Positions 36,689 through 52,726 of a stretch of DNA of 64,000 nucleotides are shown here, piece after piece. The translations under genes and the position numbers were made by a program. How positions within the stretch are numbered: the stretch's first letter is position 1; every line of letters starts with the position of its first letter. The stretch spans positions 56,574-120,573 of the IMG/VR virus record IMGVR_UViG_3300046820_002137. One strand, written 5' to 3'. This DNA comes from a virus. The notes under the pieces are model-generated. The model was not told the origin of the DNA, searched no databases, and was given only the letters and a program-made list of their open reading frames with translations.

Positions 36689-39600
36689 TTAGATATTTTC
36701 AAACGAAGCTCCTGTTGGAGTTATATAGAATGTGATATCTATAAATTCAAGAGCCTTTGTTGGTTTAATATAAATTTTACCAGTCATTTGATTTCTATCT
36801 AAGTCAGCCACATCTGAAGAAACTGTTACACGGAAATCGTATAAACCTCTATCTCTTCTGATAGCGTCTAAGATTGGGTTAACGGCATCCAAGAAGTCTT
36901 GTCTAACTTTTTGGTCGTTTTGTTCAAACAACAATCTTACAGAAACCGCCGAAATCAACTTACGAGCTTGTAACAACAATCTTCTAACGTTAATTCTGTC
37001 AAGAGCTGACTGTCTAATTTGTAAAGTTTTATTACCCCAAATTACAGTTCCTACATCAGAGAAGGTTGCAATTGGGTTAATTCTACCTTGATAAAGAGTG
37101 TCTCTATCTTCTTGAGTCAGTTTCTTACGAGCCTTAATTGCATTTACAATACCACGAGTATAACCAGCAGCTGCGAACCAAGGGAACGCGATGTTATCGG
37201 TTAATGCTAAGTTTCTTGTTACCTCAGCTGTAGGTGGAATGTAAATTTGAGTGTTGTTTACACTATCACGAGTTAATACCCATGGGTAGTAAGTACATGT
37301 ATAGTTAGAATCAATACCTGTGGTATCCAAGTTATCAACCGCCTCTTGTGGATAGATTAAATCTTGGGAATCACCAAGTTGTGGAACAAACATATTATAG
37401 TCAGGAGTAGTTGTTATATACAATGAATCCGCTCTGTCATATTCCACCATTTCTATGGCTGATTCAACAAGATTTGAATGGTTAACATAATCAATACCTG
37501 GAGTAACAAATACGTTAATGTTAACAGACTCAGGATTAGAGAATGTCTTCTGTCCTAATAAATAAGCATAATAGTCGGTGTTAGCCCAGTCAACTGAATT
37601 ATCACCTACAGTTATTTGCTTAAATGCGCCCCATCCTGTTGCGTTTGGATATCTAATATCCGCACAAGCACCTTTTAAATAACCACTTCTACCTAAAATA
37701 AATCTGTCACTATTTGTTCTATACTCTCTATAGATGTCCCATCCGTCGAAACCTCCTTGACATAAGAAAGTAAATTTACGAGCATAAATTCTATAGTACG
37801 GATTCGTCTCTTCATCAGGGTCAGATGTAAATGGAGCGGCTCCAACATCAAATGCCGCGCTTCCTGAGGTTGTGTATGAATTAGGTATTGTAATTCCAGA
37901 TGCGTTTATATCCATATGGAATCCCTTAGTTTGATAATCCCAATCTGAAGCCGTTGTAGAGTTACAAACTGAAAATACCGGTAATTGTTTACCCTTATAT
38001 TGATAAAAATCTAAATCAATACCTATTGTATCTGAAATACCCAAGTAAGTTCTACGTACATTATCACCAGGACTTGCTACTGAATCATTTCCACCTGTAG
38101 CCAAACCAAATGGTGGGTCATAAATTATTTCACCTGGGTAATCGTATTTAGTCTTATATACAGGGAACGGAGGATTAATAGAATCACCATAACTTCTCAT
38201 TGTATATCCTACGAAACCACAAGGTAAAGAATCTATTGGAGCATCTTCATTAATTTCAATCATTATGTATTTAGAATTTAATGCGTATTCACCGTCTTTA
38301 GTTCCTATTTTTTTAGCAATAAATGAATTATCACTTGGGTCCATACTACAATTAGTAAATTTCTCTAAAACTACCGGATTAGCATCTGAATCAAAGAAAT
38401 CTCTAACTAATACATCAAAAGTTCCGTTATTAAATGAAATGTTCACAATAGAAATTTTAACTTCGGTGTTTGCCGCATTACCATCAGAAATTGTGGTAAA
38501 CTTAAATAAGTTATACACTTTGTTACCCCTCAATTCAGAAACAACCCATGGAGATGCGGGTGATTGATACTGGTCTAAATACCAAGCAATTGATGATGGG
38601 TCGCTATCTTGTCTTGCATTTGGTAAAGCAATTAAATCACAATTTAAACCTCTAATATAACCTTTTCTATATGCGTAGTTTAAAAGAGATTGATATCTTT
38701 CCTCTACGAATAAAGGTACTAATGTCCTTGGTTTTGCGAAATTACTAGAACCAAAAACCTTACTTATATATTTAGGGTCCGAATTTGTTAATGAAGTTTC
38801 AAAGAAGAAATTTTCTCCATCTTTATTAGTCACATTTAATCCAAAAGTTGCATATGGATTTTTACTCACACCTGAATAAGGTCCTGTACAATCCATAGAT
38901 ACATCTGTTAATCCTGAAACTTCATAAACAGGTCCATCGTCAGATGAATAAGTTGCCAAACCTCTAGAACGAAGAGTTGCGATAACTAAATTATCATACA
39001 ATACATAAGATTGACCAGACCAAGTAAAAATAGCACCGCCAACAGAACCACTATAACATGTTAAAACCGAACCAACGTTACCTGAACCTGTTGTTCCTGT
39101 TGGACTTAAAGGAGTACAAGGGTCTTGTATTGTTACTGACACAGTCCAGTTTGTTGTTACTGAAGAATCATTTGAAACTAACACATATGTTAATGAGCCG
39201 GCATCAAAGTTATTTGTTGTTACATTACTTTCTTGAGGATTACTATCTACAGTTATAGTAGTAGTACAAGAACTAAATATACTAGTTACTTGAGTTAGGT
39301 CGGCACCCGCAAATGACGCGTAGGGTAATACAACTGTAATTGTATTTGTGTTATAATTTATACTTCCTGAAATACCTGAAACTGAATAATTATAAAATGT
39401 TGCACAATTGTTTGATGTTGATGTTTGTTCTATTTGAGTCATGTAAGAATAAAAAGACGTACCTGTATAACCTGAATTACCAATACCGTCAAACAACGCA
39501 TAATACCAAGGGTCGTTATTTGAATCTGAAAGATTAATTTCTGAAGTACTTAAATAATCCAAACCAAAAACATTAGTACTGGCAGTTAAAGTTGATGCAG

Positions 39601-40297
39601 TTAATGACTGATATATATCGGATTGTATTGCCCCGTAATAATAAATTGAGTTTGTTATTTGTTCATTACCTAATATAATGTCATAAATTTGTTGTCTAAA
39701 ATCCGCTCCAATACTTGAAACACTACCGTCAAACTTTTCATACGGAATGTTTAATTTTTGAGAAATTAAATCCCATCTATTACCTGGAGGTGGTGAAGCT
39801 GACTCAACAAATGTGATTGAATTAATACTAGAATTACATCCAGTAAAATCTATTGCAAATGGGAACGCCTCAAACTCAATACAAACTTGACTACATCCTG
39901 ATGGGTCCGCTGAAAAAGTTATACAGTTTTGACCAACCGTTGAAGGATTAACATTAGCAACCGTTGATAAAGACCAAGAAGGTCCTGCGTCGTATCCTGA
40001 TAAACCTAAGATTCTTGTTACAAACAATTGATTAGACTGTTGTAAGTAAGATTTAGCAATATAAGCCGCTTCATACTTTGGGATTTGTGTGTTTATAAAT
40101 TTTTCAGGAGATGTGTCCCCGAAATAAGATGAAAATTCATCAAAGTTGGTAATAAAGATTGGCTCAAAAGCCGGACCCTTTAAAGTTTCACCAACAATAC
40201 CTAGAGTTGTAACACCAACACTTTGTGATACAAAACTCAAGTCGACCTCAGAGGTGTAAACCCCAGGAGATACAAATACTTTACTGTTAGAAGCCAT
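36689..40297 (-). CDS. Tail sheath protein, T4 gp18-like, with large insertion (1202 aa)
   Basis: The contractile sheath subunit. Residues 1-105 have the gp18 start (VFVSPGVYTSEVDLS, then GIVGETLKGPAFEP and the FGDTSPEK region). The last 160 residues hold the conserved C-terminal core (GYTRGIVNAIKARKKLTQED, NVRRLLLQARKLISAVSVRL and the closing strands VSSDVADLDRNQMTGKIYI). Between them lie some 900 residues, so the protein is about twice T4 gp18 (659 aa). Part of the insert, about residues 305-392, looks like an Ig-like domain (INYNTNTITVVLP, then TVSVTIQ). Outward-facing decoration domains are expected. A TATTTAT motif lies 35 nt upstream of the ATG. Confidence 0.93.
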   Translation of the reverse strand: MASNSKVFVSPGVYTSEVDLSFVSQSVGVTTLGIVGETLKGPAFEPIFITNFDEFSSYFGDTSPEKFINTQIPKYEAAYIAKSYLQQSNQLFVTRILGLSGYDAGPSWSLSTVANVNPSTVGQNCITFSADPSGCSQVCIEFEAFPFAIDFTGCNSSINSITFVESASPPPGNRWDLISQKLNIPYEKFDGSVSSIGADFRQQIYDIILGNEQITNSIYYYGAIQSDIYQSLTASTLTASTNVFGLDYLSTSEINLSDSNNDPWYYALFDGIGNSGYTGTSFYSYMTQIEQTSTSNNCATFYNYSVSGISGSINYNTNTITVVLPYASFAGADLTQVTSIFSSCTTTITVDSNPQESNVTTNNFDAGSLTYVLVSNDSSVTTNWTVSVTIQDPCTPLSPTGTTGSGNVGSVLTCYSGSVGGAIFTWSGQSYVLYDNLVIATLRSRGLATYSSDDGPVYEVSGLTDVSMDCTGPYSGVSKNPYATFGLNVTNKDGENFFFETSLTNSDPKYISKVFGSSNFAKPRTLVPLFVEERYQSLLNYAYRKGYIRGLNCDLIALPNARQDSDPSSIAWYLDQYQSPASPWVVSELRGNKVYNLFKFTTISDGNAANTEVKISIVNISFNNGTFDVLVRDFFDSDANPVVLEKFTNCSMDPSDNSFIAKKIGTKDGEYALNSKYIMIEINEDAPIDSLPCGFVGYTMRSYGDSINPPFPVYKTKYDYPGEIIYDPPFGLATGGNDSVASPGDNVRRTYLGISDTIGIDLDFYQYKGKQLPVFSVCNSTTASDWDYQTKGFHMDINASGITIPNSYTTSGSAAFDVGAAPFTSDPDEETNPYYRIYARKFTFLCQGGFDGWDIYREYRTNSDRFILGRSGYLKGACADIRYPNATGWGAFKQITVGDNSVDWANTDYYAYLLGQKTFSNPESVNINVFVTPGIDYVNHSNLVESAIEMVEYDRADSLYITTTPDYNMFVPQLGDSQDLIYPQEAVDNLDTTGIDSNYTCTYYPWVLTRDSVNNTQIYIPPTAEVTRNLALTDNIAFPWFAAAGYTRGIVNAIKARKKLTQEDRDTLYQGRINPIATFSDVGTVIWGNKTLQIRQSALDRINVRRLLLQARKLISAVSVRLLFEQNDQKVRQDFLDAVNPILDAIRRDRGLYDFRVTVSSDVADLDRNQMTGKIYIKPTKALEFIDITFYITPTGASFENI

Positions 40298-44116: not shown

Positions 44117-44133
44117 ATCTATAAAATATCTTG

Positions 44134-44907
44134 ATGAAAAACTTAGAGTCTAAAGCCGAATTACTTAAAGAAGAAATTATTTTACAAGAAAAGAAAGATA
44201 ACCAAAACTTTCTTATAACTGAAATGAAACGAATTGGTATCGATAAACTACCATATTCATATTCTTCTTTAAAAAATTTCATTGATTCTAAAACAATGGA
44301 TGTACATTATAACAATCACTACAAAACATATGTCAAAAAATTAAATGACGCATTATCAAAAAAAGATTATGGTGATATTGAACTCGAGGAAATTGTTAAA
44401 TCTATAAGTAAATATAATACCAAAATTAGAAACAATGCTGGCGGGGCCTTTAATCATGCAATGTTTTGGAAAATGTTATCACCAAAAAAACAAAAAATTC
44501 AGGGTGAAATTGTAGAAAAAATTAAAAAACATTTTGGTAGTGTTAATGAGTTCAAACAAGAATTTGAGGAAACTGCTAAAGATAGATTTGGTTCGGGATG
44601 GGTTTGGTTAGTTTTAACCAAAAATAATAAATTAAAGATTATGTCAACCGCTAATCAAGATAATCCACTTATGAATGTTATTGATGGAGGCTATCCTCTA
44701 TTAGGATTAGACTTATGGGAACATGCTTACTATTTAAAATACCAAAGTAAAAGAGACGAGTACATTAAAAATTTTTGGGATGTGGTTAATTGGGAATTTG
44801 TTAATGAACTTTATAATTTAAAAATAAAAAAAGAAACTAACGAATCTGTTAGAACTACAAAAAACCAAATTTTAGAGAGTATTAAGGGTCCGATAAAACA
44901 CGGTTAA
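44134..44907 (+). CDS. Superoxide dismutase, Fe/Mn family (257 aa)
   Basis: Disproportionates superoxide. All four metal ligands are recognisable: H58 in DVHYNNH, H108 in FNHAMFW, and D193 and H197 in LDLWEHAYY. The active-site Gln is in STANQD, the place used by Mn-type enzymes, so an Mn or cambialistic enzyme is likely. A 45-residue charged N-terminal extension and a basic C-terminal tail make it longer than usual (about 200 aa). I start it at the ATG at 44134; a TTG codon precedes. Expression is probably late, from the TATTTAT motif. It may protect infected cells from oxidative stress or be packaged. Confidence 0.9.
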   Translation: MKNLESKAELLKEEIILQEKKDNQNFLITEMKRIGIDKLPYSYSSLKNFIDSKTMDVHYNNHYKTYVKKLNDALSKKDYGDIELEEIVKSISKYNTKIRNNAGGAFNHAMFWKMLSPKKQKIQGEIVEKIKKHFGSVNEFKQEFEETAKDRFGSGWVWLVLTKNNKLKIMSTANQDNPLMNVIDGGYPLLGLDLWEHAYYLKYQSKRDEYIKNFWDVVNWEFVNELYNLKIKKETNESVRTTKNQILESIKGPIKHG

Positions 44908-49384: not shown

Positions 49385-50014
49385 TCAAAGTTGTTGGAAA
49401 TACTTTTGTATTCTTTGACTTAATCTAACTCTTGGGTCATTTTCATTTCGACCCGTGACATTATACGGAACAATAAAACCAAAACTTAAAAAAACTCTTC
49501 TTGAATTAAATTCATTTGTCCAATGTTTGTAAAGAGAAGCTTCAAATCCATAAAGGTCTCGTTGTTCAACGGGGACATATGTTTTATCAATGTGTAGATT
49601 ATAATCTTCAGATAAAACACTAACATTACATTTGTAATTTATATGTCCTTCGATTGATGCATCGTAATGTGGGTCAATTTTTCCACCCTTATTCATATCA
49701 ACCGCCTGTAAGAACATATGTTCTTTTGGTAATTTAATTGTTTTAGAAATTCTATCTATGATATTAATAATAAAGTCGGGGACGGGTTCTTTTTTAACCT
49801 CACCCACCGACTGAAAATTTGTTATATAATTTGTATATTCTGTTTGAGAAATATCAAAAATATATGAATTACCATTAAGGGTTTTTGAAAGTTCTGCCAA
49901 ATGGTGATTTGCTTTAAATTCTTGATTATTTAAAGTATCAATCCATTTTAATATGTCATTAACTTCTTTATGACTTATAAAATTTTTAATTATTTTATAA
50001 TCTTCAGACCCCAT
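49385..50014 (-). CDS. 2-oxoglutarate/Fe(II)-dependent oxygenase (209 aa)
   Basis: A double-stranded beta-helix oxygenase. The iron ligands H116 and D118 are in DPHYDAS and the distal H164 in YKHW, with R172/R173 available to bind 2-oxoglutarate, and the LSFGF closing strand. Such enzymes hydroxylate proteins (prolyl or lysyl hydroxylases), lipids or nucleotides, so substrate is not fixed by sequence. The gene lies just before the fiber genes and within a few kilobases of a glycosylation operon that includes GT60-like and PLOD-like enzymes, whose eukaryotic relatives act on hydroxylated residues. The start overlaps the preceding 82-aa gene by 25 bp. Confidence 0.8.
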   Translation of the reverse strand: MGSEDYKIIKNFISHKEVNDILKWIDTLNNQEFKANHHLAELSKTLNGNSYIFDISQTEYTNYITNFQSVGEVKKEPVPDFIINIIDRISKTIKLPKEHMFLQAVDMNKGGKIDPHYDASIEGHINYKCNVSVLSEDYNLHIDKTYVPVEQRDLYGFEASLYKHWTNEFNSRRVFLSFGFIVPYNVTGRNENDPRVRLSQRIQKYFQQL

Positions 50015-50238
50015 TTGTTAAGAAACTCTTTTGGACCTATTTCTAATTCCATAATAGATAAGTTTTTCTTATCGTAAATGGCTCTCATCTTTGATTCCTC
50101 TCCCGCCATTGAACAAAACCAATGTGTTGCCGGTTCTTCCCCTGTTGGGGATACTGGAATTTTCATTACGTTTTTAGTAACCCAAGATTCTCTTACTTGT
50201 TCTACTTTATCATTTTCTGTTAAAATATTAATTCTCAT
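49990..50238 (-). CDS. Unknown protein (82 aa)
   Basis: I do not recognise this protein. It is mixed charged/hydrophobic with a Trp/Cys segment (ATHWFCSMAGEES) and no membrane helix. It overlaps the oxygenase gene by 25 bp and follows the solenoid fiber gene by 4 bp, so it belongs to the same unit. Confidence 0.65.
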   Translation of the reverse strand: MRINILTENDKVEQVRESWVTKNVMKIPVSPTGEEPATHWFCSMAGEESKMRAIYDKKNLSIMELEIGPKEFLNKWGLKIIK

Positions 50239-50242
50239 TTTA

Positions 50243-52726
50243 TTATGGATTATATGGTCCGTTTATGTTTGTTGAGACGTACCAAGTTACTGTGTCCCAA
50301 TCTAAAGTTGTTATAACATCATATCCGTCTCTTGTTTTTTGGATTGTGCAATTTGCCGTTGTATAAACAAGTGGTTCATCTGAAACAGAATCGACTGTTA
50401 TTACTAAATCTTCCGCTCCGTCAAACTGAACCGCACTTATAGTAATTTGGTCTCCAACTAAATATTCAGTTCCCGCAGATAATATTGTTACAGTAGTTAC
50501 AATATTACCTGAAACAGTTACCTCAAATTCCGCACCTGTTCCGTGACCTGTTGTAGTTGTTTGCGTCACAGAAAAAGTTGAATCTGTTGCCCCACTTGGA
50601 GTGGTATTAGAAATTGTTACTACGTTTCCTTGAAGGGTTGTGAAATTAATATTGTTAAGTCCGTTAACCTTAACATCGTTTAATTGAAAATAGTATCCGA
50701 CCGTATTATTTGCAAAATTATCCTCAACGTAGTTATTATAAAAATACTCACCAATATTGTTGTCATAGAAATTATTTCCGATTCTATTACCTCTATAACT
50801 TCCTCCACCAAAACCAAATCCATCCCCAACTTCATTACTAAAAAAACCAATTCCAATAGTATTGTATCTAAATTGTCCTTTACAAGTATTCAGAGCGAAA
50901 AAATCACCGAAAGTATTATTCGTTACATCTCCACTAAAAACGTTAGCGGCACATCCGAATGCGACGTTATTATTGTCAAAATCAGCAAAAGTTTCGTTTC
51001 CTTTAAAATCGGTTTTAATTGTGTTATTCTGAAAACCTTTACGAATATTGTTACCTTTAAAATTGTTCATTATTTCGTTACTTACGAAATTATTATCCCC
51101 CATATCCTCAGAGTTACCTATAGTACAAGTATTGAAATCATTCATTATTGTATTGTTAGCAAAAACACTGTAAATGTTATTTTGATAAAAATCATTTAAA
51201 ATGTTATTATTATTAAATGTTACTCTAATTGTATTACTATTAAAATTATACCCGATTCTATTAAACTCAAAATCTCCTGACCCAATATTCGTACTATCAC
51301 CTATTGTACTATTCTCAAAATAGTCACCAATAATATTGTTTTCAAATCTTGCATATGTTGTAATACCATTATATCCGTTTCCGATTAAATTACCAATAAA
51401 GTTTGAATAAACATTATTATTATTATATCCGTTTCCAATATCGTTTTTATAGAAATCATCATAAATGTTATTATTATTAAATTGATTTCCTATCTCATTA
51501 TTTTGAAAGTCTCCATTAGTCCAAACATTATTTTGAAAGTCATTTCCAATATTGTTTCTGTAAAAAGACCCTCCGAGTAAAATATTAAAATCAAAATCAC
51601 TACCAATTCTATTATTGTTAAAATTAGCCGTGATATAATTGTTATTAAAAAAATCTCCAATTATATTTCCATCAAAATCATCATTTGTTGAGTTATTATA
51701 AAATCTATCACCTATTTGATTACTGTCACAATCATCATTAAATGTGTTATTATAAGAACCATTTCCAATTCTGTTATTAAGGAATGAACCCGATATAAAC
51801 ACATTATTTGCCAATAAAAATTCTCCGGTATTGTTTTCTAAATATAGATTGGCTTGGTCACCGATATAGTTATTTACTACAGAACTATCCACCAATGCAT
51901 CTCCAAATGTTGTGTATTCATTAAATTCATTTGCTCTTACATTTGGTTGGTGATAACTCATTATACCATCGTCAGATGCGGAATAATAAGGAGCACTATC
52001 AGTTCCACTTATTGTTACACCTGATATAATTGCTAAAGAATCACTATCAACTGATATAACTTCGAAAAACGCGGGATTTAAATTTGGTATCGCAATAATT
52101 GACCCGCTTGAAATATTAGAATTAAATGTAGTACCTGTGTTACCGTACAATATACCAGTAGTTCCTGTAATACCACTTATTCCTATAAGTCCCGCTAGTG
52201 GACTATTTTCATTATATGAATATCCTCGATATCTTTTGAACAAAATAGTTCTGTGGTCATAGTCAGTTCTGTTATTAAAATTATCAATTCTTTCAGTAAT
52301 TCTACCAAATGCAGGTCCCGCAGTATGTTCAGTTGAGTTAAAACTATAGTCGTATTTTATTTTATCAAATGGAAATTCAGGTTGGAATGCATCTATAGAT
52401 ATAGTATTTGCAGACGTTGCCAAAACAACAATAGGTGATACAGTATCGGCGCTTTTATATATTCCCGTAGTAATTGGGTCTTTTACATTATTATAATCTG
52501 GCTGGTCATAACAAGTTCTAAAGTCGGTTATGACATAATAACTTCCCGTGTTTAATGTCTCACCAGTAATTTTATCAACAAATTCAGAGTAAGTTACCTC
52601 AACTGTTGAGTTAGAAGTTATAGCCGAAATTGCTCCTTGATATGTTGTCCCTTCATCAACAAATGGAAATATACTTGTTGAATTTGGGGTACCTAAAGGT
52701 AATTCTGAAATTTTTACGTTAGCCAT
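50243..52726 (-). CDS. Fiber protein built of nine-residue solenoid repeats (827 aa)
   Basis: N-terminal 80 residues (VKISELPLGTPNSTSIFPFV) resemble attachment domains of phage fibers. From about residue 292 to 688 the protein is a run of about 40 nonapeptide units of the form F-x-x-N-x-I-x-x-x, for example FYQNNIYSV, FANNTIMND, FKGNNIRKG and FYDNNIGEY. Such regular Asn/Phe/Ile registers are expected to form a beta-solenoid. The C-terminal 130 residues are Thr/Gly-rich beta sequence. It follows a TATTTAT motif by 14 nt and precedes a Pro/Thr-rich fiber gene. A tail-fiber or spike function is inferred. Confidence 0.85.
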   Translation of the reverse strand: MANVKISELPLGTPNSTSIFPFVDEGTTYQGAISAITSNSTVEVTYSEFVDKITGETLNTGSYYVITDFRTCYDQPDYNNVKDPITTGIYKSADTVSPIVVLATSANTISIDAFQPEFPFDKIKYDYSFNSTEHTAGPAFGRITERIDNFNNRTDYDHRTILFKRYRGYSYNENSPLAGLIGISGITGTTGILYGNTGTTFNSNISSGSIIAIPNLNPAFFEVISVDSDSLAIISGVTISGTDSAPYYSASDDGIMSYHQPNVRANEFNEYTTFGDALVDSSVVNNYIGDQANLYLENNTGEFLLANNVFISGSFLNNRIGNGSYNNTFNDDCDSNQIGDRFYNNSTNDDFDGNIIGDFFNNNYITANFNNNRIGSDFDFNILLGGSFYRNNIGNDFQNNVWTNGDFQNNEIGNQFNNNNIYDDFYKNDIGNGYNNNNVYSNFIGNLIGNGYNGITTYARFENNIIGDYFENSTIGDSTNIGSGDFEFNRIGYNFNSNTIRVTFNNNNILNDFYQNNIYSVFANNTIMNDFNTCTIGNSEDMGDNNFVSNEIMNNFKGNNIRKGFQNNTIKTDFKGNETFADFDNNNVAFGCAANVFSGDVTNNTFGDFFALNTCKGQFRYNTIGIGFFSNEVGDGFGFGGGSYRGNRIGNNFYDNNIGEYFYNNYVEDNFANNTVGYYFQLNDVKVNGLNNINFTTLQGNVVTISNTTPSGATDSTFSVTQTTTTGHGTGAEFEVTVSGNIVTTVTILSAGTEYLVGDQITISAVQFDGAEDLVITVDSVSDEPLVYTTANCTIQKTRDGYDVITTLDWDTVTWYVSTNINGPYNP
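50660..51850 (-). repeat. Tandem nonapeptide repeat tract (27-bp period) in fiber gene
   Basis: Protein register F-x-x-N-x-I-x-x-x repeats about 40 times with few interruptions, giving a 27-bp periodicity in DNA. The units have diverged, so no exact DNA repeat is preserved; the periodicity shows in the third-letter-tolerant codons for Phe, Asn and Ile. Confidence 0.8.

What the first reader, a model, noticed from the sequence alone, without database searches (positions are those of the whole stretch)
50660..51850. Nonapeptide beta-solenoid of about 40 repeats in a phage fiber
Consecutive units keep the same nine-residue register F-x-x-N-x-I-x-x-x through about 400 residues. It is neither a classic pentapeptide, hexapeptide nor collagen-like repeat. 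Asn at position 4 and Ile at position 6 may form stacked ladders. The unit may define a new fiber fold.
Basis: seen in the sequence. Interest (0 to 1): 0.6.

Follow-up and report, generated by a model that had tools for sequence, protein, structure and literature searches.

The report
Nine-residue beta-solenoid in phage fibre
A phage protein, most likely a tail fibre, is largely built from a nine-amino-acid unit repeated about 40 times; two units appear to make one turn of a thin helical rod, and the same uncatalogued rod, attached to an uncatalogued domain, occurs in dozens of other uncultured phages.

Summary
Window 50243-52726 (-) encodes 827 residues; residues ~310-690 follow a nine-residue period (F-x-x-N-x-I-G-x-x): 20 unit pairs at spacing 9 versus 0.02 expected, with no tandem repeat left in the DNA. 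It is broken by a few short insertions. The physical unit is 18 residues. In 65 non-redundant relatives, units resemble each other at even lags and less than chance at odd lags (z +9.2, -4.3, -4.1, +2.3), closest homologues differ by an 18-residue indel, and AlphaFold2 gives four short strand contacts per 18 residues. The relative's model superposes on HetL, a pentapeptide-repeat protein (Z 17.0, 2.6 A, 198 residues). So it is best read as a right-handed beta-solenoid, a shortened pentapeptide-type helix (5+4+5+4 per turn): a new variant rather than a wholly new fold. No Pfam, PHROGs or NCBIfam model covers it. The repeat almost always follows an uncatalogued N-terminal 'ITDF' domain: 55 of 63 ITDF proteins sampled without reference to the repeat carry it. 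Context and relatives' N-termini indicate a tail fibre of a T4-like myovirus. Fibre function, oligomer state and receptor are inferred. AlphaFold2 over-predicts solenoids for perfect repeats, so a structure is needed.

The parts
50243..52726 (-). Whole fibre gene, 827 aa (P0001)
   Evidence: ORF and translation; homologues of 36-81% identity in uncultured phages
52610..52726 (-). N-terminal module, residues 1-39, probably the attachment end; replaced in the 81% homologue (43% identity in residues 11-40 against 89% in the next domain)
   Evidence: region-by-region identity; no phage database match
51857..52609 (-). 'ITDF' domain, residues 40-290 (core 40-170: TYxEL..L..GxxYxITDF.T.YDQP ... GRITERID...DYD); no Pfam family or PDB relative
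   Evidence: alignment of 30 diverse members; PDB profile search and Pfam scan without a credible match
50657..51799 (-). Nonapeptide solenoid, residues 310-690, F-x-x-N-x-I-G-x-x, about 21 coils of 18 residues
   Evidence: periodicity, AlphaFold2 model with block pLDDT mostly 75-93, position-wise conservation
50366..50656 (-). Beta-sandwich insert, residues 691-787 ('GTGAEFEVTVSGNIVTTVTILSAGTEYLVGDQITI')
   Evidence: AF2 pLDDT 86-92 over residues 701-780; BFVD matches of ~90-100 residues at 2-4 A to cyanophage structural proteins are probably this domain, aligned range not reported; absent in several relatives
50246..50365 (-). C-terminal end motif, residues 788-827 (VYxxYxCxIxxxxdGxxxLxYyD...), shared by the family
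   Evidence: alignment A3, A1 conserved columns Y788 and D809
49990..50238 (-). 82-aa gene directly downstream, conserved next to the fibre gene; candidate fibre chaperone (inference)
   Evidence: found beside the fibre gene in L006, L008, L010, L054, L074, L118, L143
49385..50014 (-). 209-aa gene conserved with the 82-aa gene beside the fibre; HxD...H pattern suggests a 2OG-Fe(II) oxygenase (unconfirmed)
   Evidence: synteny; no Pfam or PDB match
52776..55085 (-). Upstream fibre-like gene with PTPTPT linkers, often found beside the nonapeptide fibre

Best explanation
The gene encodes a tail fibre (or side fibre/tailspike-like receptor-binding protein) of a T4-like contractile-tailed phage. 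The chain runs from an attachment end (1-39) through the ITDF domain (40-290) and a rigid rod (310-690) to a C-terminal sandwich plus a conserved end motif. In the rod, each coil of a right-handed parallel beta-solenoid uses two nonapeptides, i.e. four faces of 5+4+5+4 residues. Phe1, Ile6, Asn4 and small residue 8 point inward and stack from coil to coil. Gly7 allows the tighter turn that removes one residue from every second pentapeptide face. Positions 2, 3, 5 and 9 form a polar, Asn/Ser/Tyr/Asp-rich surface free to vary. About 21 coils at ~4.8 A (textbook rise) give a ~10 nm rod that carries the distal domain away from the baseplate and may itself touch host glycans. Length evolves by gain or loss of whole coils. 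Shown: repeat, 18-residue periodicity, domain order, conserved positions, wide occurrence. Predicted: the solenoid fold. Inferred: virion location, receptor binding, oligomer state.
For: Period 9/18 far above shuffles. Units alternate: even lags enriched, odd lags depleted in 65 non-redundant relatives. Indel lengths peak at 9 and 18; the closest informative pairs (P0001/L006, L060/L065, L060/L143) differ by exactly 18. AF2 of P0001: repeat blocks mostly pLDDT 75-93 with two short strand contacts per nonapeptide; a distant relative, L122, gives the same pattern at ~80-92. L122 superposes on HetL, Z 17.0, 2.6 A, 198 residues, model 275-473 against HetL 0-234: 11 coils of 18 against about 11 of 20 after HetL's two loop insertions. 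Conservation is highest at positions 1, 4, 6, 7, 8 and lowest at 2, 3, 5 against L006; solenoid dN/dS 0.12-0.28. Fibre context: tail sheath, tube, baseplate wedge and hub genes in the same window; relatives carry collagen-like tail-fibre N-termini or a baseplate-wedge tail-fibre connector N-terminus; the N-terminal module is exchanged between close homologues.
Against: [quoted passage not shown] P0001's repeats are diverged and the 18-residue signal comes from sequence alone, which lessens but does not remove the concern. Whole-model pTM is only 0.60, and Foldseek E-values are weak (best 1e-3 for P0001, 0.09 for L122). No direct evidence that the protein is in the virion. Its own N-terminus matched nothing. 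Relatives in bacterial MAGs could be prophage or chromosomal.
Confidence: 0.74

Rival explanations
1. It is a depolymerase tailspike: the beta-helix carries a catalytic groove that cuts host capsule or O-antigen.
For: Superposes on tailspike beta-helices at Z 16-17. Acidic residues in the first coils (D331, D332, D350, D352) are 89-95% conserved among 19 relatives, and the first half of the solenoid is better conserved than the second.
Against: The coil is short (18 residues) with no long loops, unlike depolymerase helices; no enzyme family hit. Shared beta-helix fold shows no function.
Confidence: 0.13
2. An RTX-like, calcium-bound beta-roll: a nonapeptide repeat in which two units make an 18-residue coil.
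For: Same unit length and same two-unit coil; best structural row for L122 is the Ca-dependent antifreeze domain 3p4g, Z 17.3, 3.4 A, 247 residues.
Against: GGxGxD occurs once in 65,576 aa of family sequence, against 1961 F..N.[IV]; the conserved turn is N-x-I-G, with no Asp ladder.
Confidence: 0.06
3. The repeat is not a solenoid; AF2 hallucinates one for repetitive, Asn-rich sequence, and the region is a flexible low-complexity linker.
For: Documented AF2 bias for perfect repeats (PMC11795689).
Against: Core positions conserved and surface positions variable, low dN/dS, even/odd lag alternation, whole-coil indels.
Confidence: 0.07

Closest known systems
Pentapeptide-repeat proteins, Rfr fold (HetL, EfsQnr, MfpA, AlbG)
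   Same: Predicted right-handed four-faced parallel helix with one inward residue per face and a small i-2 residue; HetL superposes at Z 17.0, 2.6 A, 198 residues, EfsQnr at Z 14.6
   Different: 18 rather than 20 residues per coil; unit F-x-x-N-x-I-G-x-x rather than A(D/N)LXX; Asn at the i-2 position of one face; no Pfam match
Phage tailspike beta-helices (Sf6, P22, HK620, CBA120 TSP3, Pam1)
   Same: Parallel right-handed beta-helix in a phage receptor-binding protein (Z 13-17)
   Different: Those have longer, irregular three-sheet coils with loops and active sites; here a short, regular, sequence-repetitive coil
RTX nonapeptide beta-roll and MpAFP region IV (3p4g)
   Same: Nonapeptide unit, two units per coil in RTX; 3p4g superposes at Z 17.3
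   Different: No GGxGxD calcium motif
Sphingomonas phage PAU gp99
   Same: Only isolate-phage protein found with a related ITDF domain (34% to P0001, 44-45% to L122 and L047)
   Different: The nonapeptide solenoid is missing after the domain
L010 downstream paralogue (615 aa)
   Same: ITDF-like start and the same C-terminal end motif
   Different: Repeat of about 10-11 residues, best period 21: same ends around a wider coil

Membership tests
Pentapeptide-repeat proteins (Rfr) | At least eight contiguous pentapeptides A(D/N)LXX | tested here: not met
   0 tandem A[DN]L-type pairs in 65,576 aa of family sequence; no Pfam hit; lag 5 not enriched
Pentapeptide-repeat proteins (Rfr) | Right-handed four-faced helix, 20 residues per coil | tested here: inconclusive
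   Predicted fold superposes on HetL but with 18 residues per coil; prediction only
RTX beta-roll | GGxGxDxUx calcium nonapeptides | tested here: not met
   One match in 65,576 aa; no Pfam hit for P0001
Hexapeptide left-handed beta-helix | Six-residue period | tested here: not met
   Lag 6 is depleted, z -2.7
Collagen-like fibre | G-x-y triplets | tested here: not met
   No Pfam collagen hit and no lag-3 signal in P0001; collagen stretches occur only in some relatives' N-termini
Phage tail fibre / receptor-binding protein | Virion attachment N-terminus | tested here: inconclusive
   Relatives L047 and L056 have tail-fibre N-termini; P0001's own N-terminus has no match
Phage tail fibre / receptor-binding protein | Encoded with contractile tail genes | tested here: met
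   Tail sheath, tube, baseplate wedge and hub genes within 10-45 kb
Tailspike depolymerase | Trimeric beta-helix with glycan-cleaving site | not testable with these tools
   Single-chain prediction only; no enzyme family hit

The most novel reading that the evidence does not exclude
An uncatalogued family of receptor-binding fibres, probably mostly of phages of Bacteroidota, defined by the ITDF domain plus an 18-residue-per-coil (5+4+5+4) beta-solenoid with an internal asparagine ladder, a minimal variant of the pentapeptide helix whose length is tuned by adding or removing whole coils, from about 10 to several tens of coils.
Probability: 0.5. Interest if true: 0.65.

Novelty: new variant of a known kind. 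Interest (0 to 1): 0.5.

Why it matters
Host recognition proteins of uncultured phages are mostly unannotated. This gives a sequence signature (ITDF domain plus nonapeptide rod) that would flag probable fibres in phage genomes where Pfam, PHROGs and NCBIfam are silent. If the structure is right, it adds a regular 18-residue solenoid with defined inward and outward positions to the known beta-solenoids, useful for questions of how rods lengthen by whole coils and as a natural scaffold with free surface positions.

Tried and rejected
Family libraries: no usable hit for the protein. PDB by sequence: only a spurious match to the fibronectin design Fibcon at E 0.076. Literature: no paper found on nonapeptide or nine-residue repeats with beta-solenoid or beta-helix in phage fibres; open-access papers only. 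Most single-match hits in bacterial genomes look like chance and were not used. A phage tblastn with the 37-aa ITDF core found nothing. Left-handed hexapeptide helices did not appear among the structural matches; this is not proof of handedness. An 18-residue coil was preferred to 9 or 27 because units one or three apart are less alike than chance.

Full report
What is there. The window is 64 kb of a 120,573-base virus record with T4-like genes: tail sheath, tail tube, baseplate wedge and hub proteins, UvsX, DnaB-type helicase, DNA polymerase and ribonucleotide reductase. The finding lies in a minus-strand ORF, 50243-52726, 827 aa. The coordinates given correspond to residues 293-689.

The repeat is real. 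Autocorrelation of residues 281-700 shows strong peaks at 9, 18, 27 and 36 (z 10.2, 10.8, 5.9, 3.7). Twenty pairs of the motif stand exactly nine apart, against a shuffle mean of 0.018. The DNA has no detectable tandem repeat there, so the copies are old and the period is held by selection on the protein. The register is interrupted by a handful of insertions. Over the family the unit is F1 x2 x3 N4 x5 I6 G7 [NSD]8 [ND]9.

Who else has it. P0001 has homologues of 81, 54 and 42% identity in IMG/VR contigs and a graded series down to ~30%. The same motif at period 10 or 8 gave 31 and 61 stretches, nearly all with single matches or low complexity. In almost all complete members the repeat follows a domain with the core TYxELxxLIxxxxLxxGxxYLITDFxTxYDQP, here called ITDF. 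To avoid circularity, viral contigs were scanned for ITDF..YDQP alone: of 63 newly fetched such proteins with enough sequence behind the domain, 55 carry the nonapeptide solenoid. Neither the ITDF domain nor the repeat has a Pfam, PHROGs or NCBIfam model or a PDB relative by sequence; the tail-fibre hits in L047 and L056 are to other parts of those proteins. Among named phages only Sphingomonas phage PAU gp99 was found to have an ITDF domain, without the nonapeptides, plus an unannotated 636-kb metagenomic phage. Bacterial MAG hits with the architecture are mainly Bacteroidota (L180, L182, L198, L263) and one Patescibacteria MAG (L168), so hosts are probably mostly Bacteroidota (inference).

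How big is a coil. Three lines agree on 18 residues. First, in runs from 65 non-redundant proteins (1220 units), variable positions of units two apart are more alike than in shuffled runs (z 9.2), units one or three apart less alike (z -4.3, -4.1), four apart more alike (z 2.3), five less (z -2.4), six more (z 1.9). Gly at position 7 shows the same alternation (odds ratio 2.8 at lag 2, null 1.5). Second, indels between homologues peak at 9 and 18 residues, and three informative close pairs, including P0001 with its 81% homologue, differ by exactly 18. Third, AlphaFold2 gives two short strand contacts per nonapeptide, around positions 1-2 and 5-6, i.e. four per 18.

What fold. The P0001 model (20-sequence alignment) has mean pLDDT 74.6, mostly 75-93 in the repeat. 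A distant relative with regular repeats, L122, gives ~80-92 across most of its solenoid from three sequences. VIA-align places the L122 solenoid on HetL with Z 17.0, 2.6 A, 198 residues, model 275-473 on HetL 0-234; HetL has 20-residue coils plus six- and nine-residue loops, so 11 coils of 18 match about 11 of 20. It also fits the Ca-dependent antifreeze domain 3p4g (Z 17.3, 3.4 A, 247 residues). P0001 matches tailspike beta-helices at Z 16-17 and pentapeptide proteins at 13-15. Superposing this many residues on right-handed helices implies right-handedness (inference). The simplest reading is a pentapeptide-type helix with one residue removed from every second face, at Gly7. Conservation fits: between homologues positions 1, 4, 6, 7 and 8 are kept (0.84-1.00 identity to L006) while 2, 3 and 5 vary (0.59-0.66). 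A paralogue beside the L010 fibre keeps the ITDF-like start and end motif but has a 10-11-residue unit with best period 21, so the same ends may hold coils of different girth.

Caution on AlphaFold2. It is known to give confident, unrealistic beta-solenoids for perfect repeats (PMC11795689); that paper suggests the problem may matter mainly for near-perfect repeats. P0001's repeats are far from perfect and the coil size is supported by sequence alone, but a structure is needed. Foldseek E-values themselves are weak.

Function. Tail-gene context, tail-fibre N-termini in relatives (collagen-like, PHROG tail fibre; baseplate-wedge tail-fibre connector), exchange of the N-terminal module between close homologues (identity 43% in residues 11-40, 89% in 41-290) and a C-terminal sandwich that probably accounts for the cyanophage structural-protein matches all point to a fibre. 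The rod would be about 10 nm long here; L038, with 2149 aa, would be several times longer. Purifying selection acts on the solenoid (dN/dS 0.12-0.28). Conserved acidic residues in the first coils keep a depolymerase possible. Two small genes, 82 and 209 aa, lie directly downstream and are conserved beside the fibre gene in seven relatives; a chaperone or modifying role is a guess.

Verdict. Observation confirmed; interpretation partly supported. New variant of a known kind: an uncatalogued, widespread nonapeptide solenoid with an 18-residue coil, similar in predicted shape to the pentapeptide helix, in a probable phage fibre family with an uncatalogued domain.

Noticed in passing
window 49385-50238 (-): Gene pair of 209 aa (HxD...H, 2OG-oxygenase-like by eye) and 82 aa conserved directly downstream of the fibre gene in at least seven related phages; no Pfam or PDB match.
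   Followed up: partly
window 52776-58326 (-): PTPTPT-linker fibre-like gene next to an HtrL_YibB/GT2-like gene and a DUF707 gene: a possible fibre-glycosylation cassette.
   Followed up: no
window 44131-44907 (+): The phage carries an Fe/Mn superoxide dismutase (Pfam Sod_Fe_N and Sod_Fe_C).
   Followed up: no
window 36689-40297 (-): Tail sheath protein of 1202 aa; the PHROG sheath match covers only about residues 910-1200, so it has a very large N-terminal addition; nearest in Microcystis phage Mel-JY01.
   Followed up: no
L010:9199-11043: Second fibre with ITDF-like start and shared C-terminal motif but a ~10-11-residue S-x-I-x-x-N-x-[IL] repeat, best period 21.
   Followed up: partly
L092, L099, L145, L146; L040, L047, L056 (one 235-kb contig): Some phages carry two to four nonapeptide fibre paralogues, several next to each other.
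   Followed up: no
L168:3434-7066: ITDF domain plus short nonapeptide stretch in a Patescibacteria MAG, followed by a long region ending in what looks like an intramolecular-chaperone-type C-terminus.
   Followed up: no
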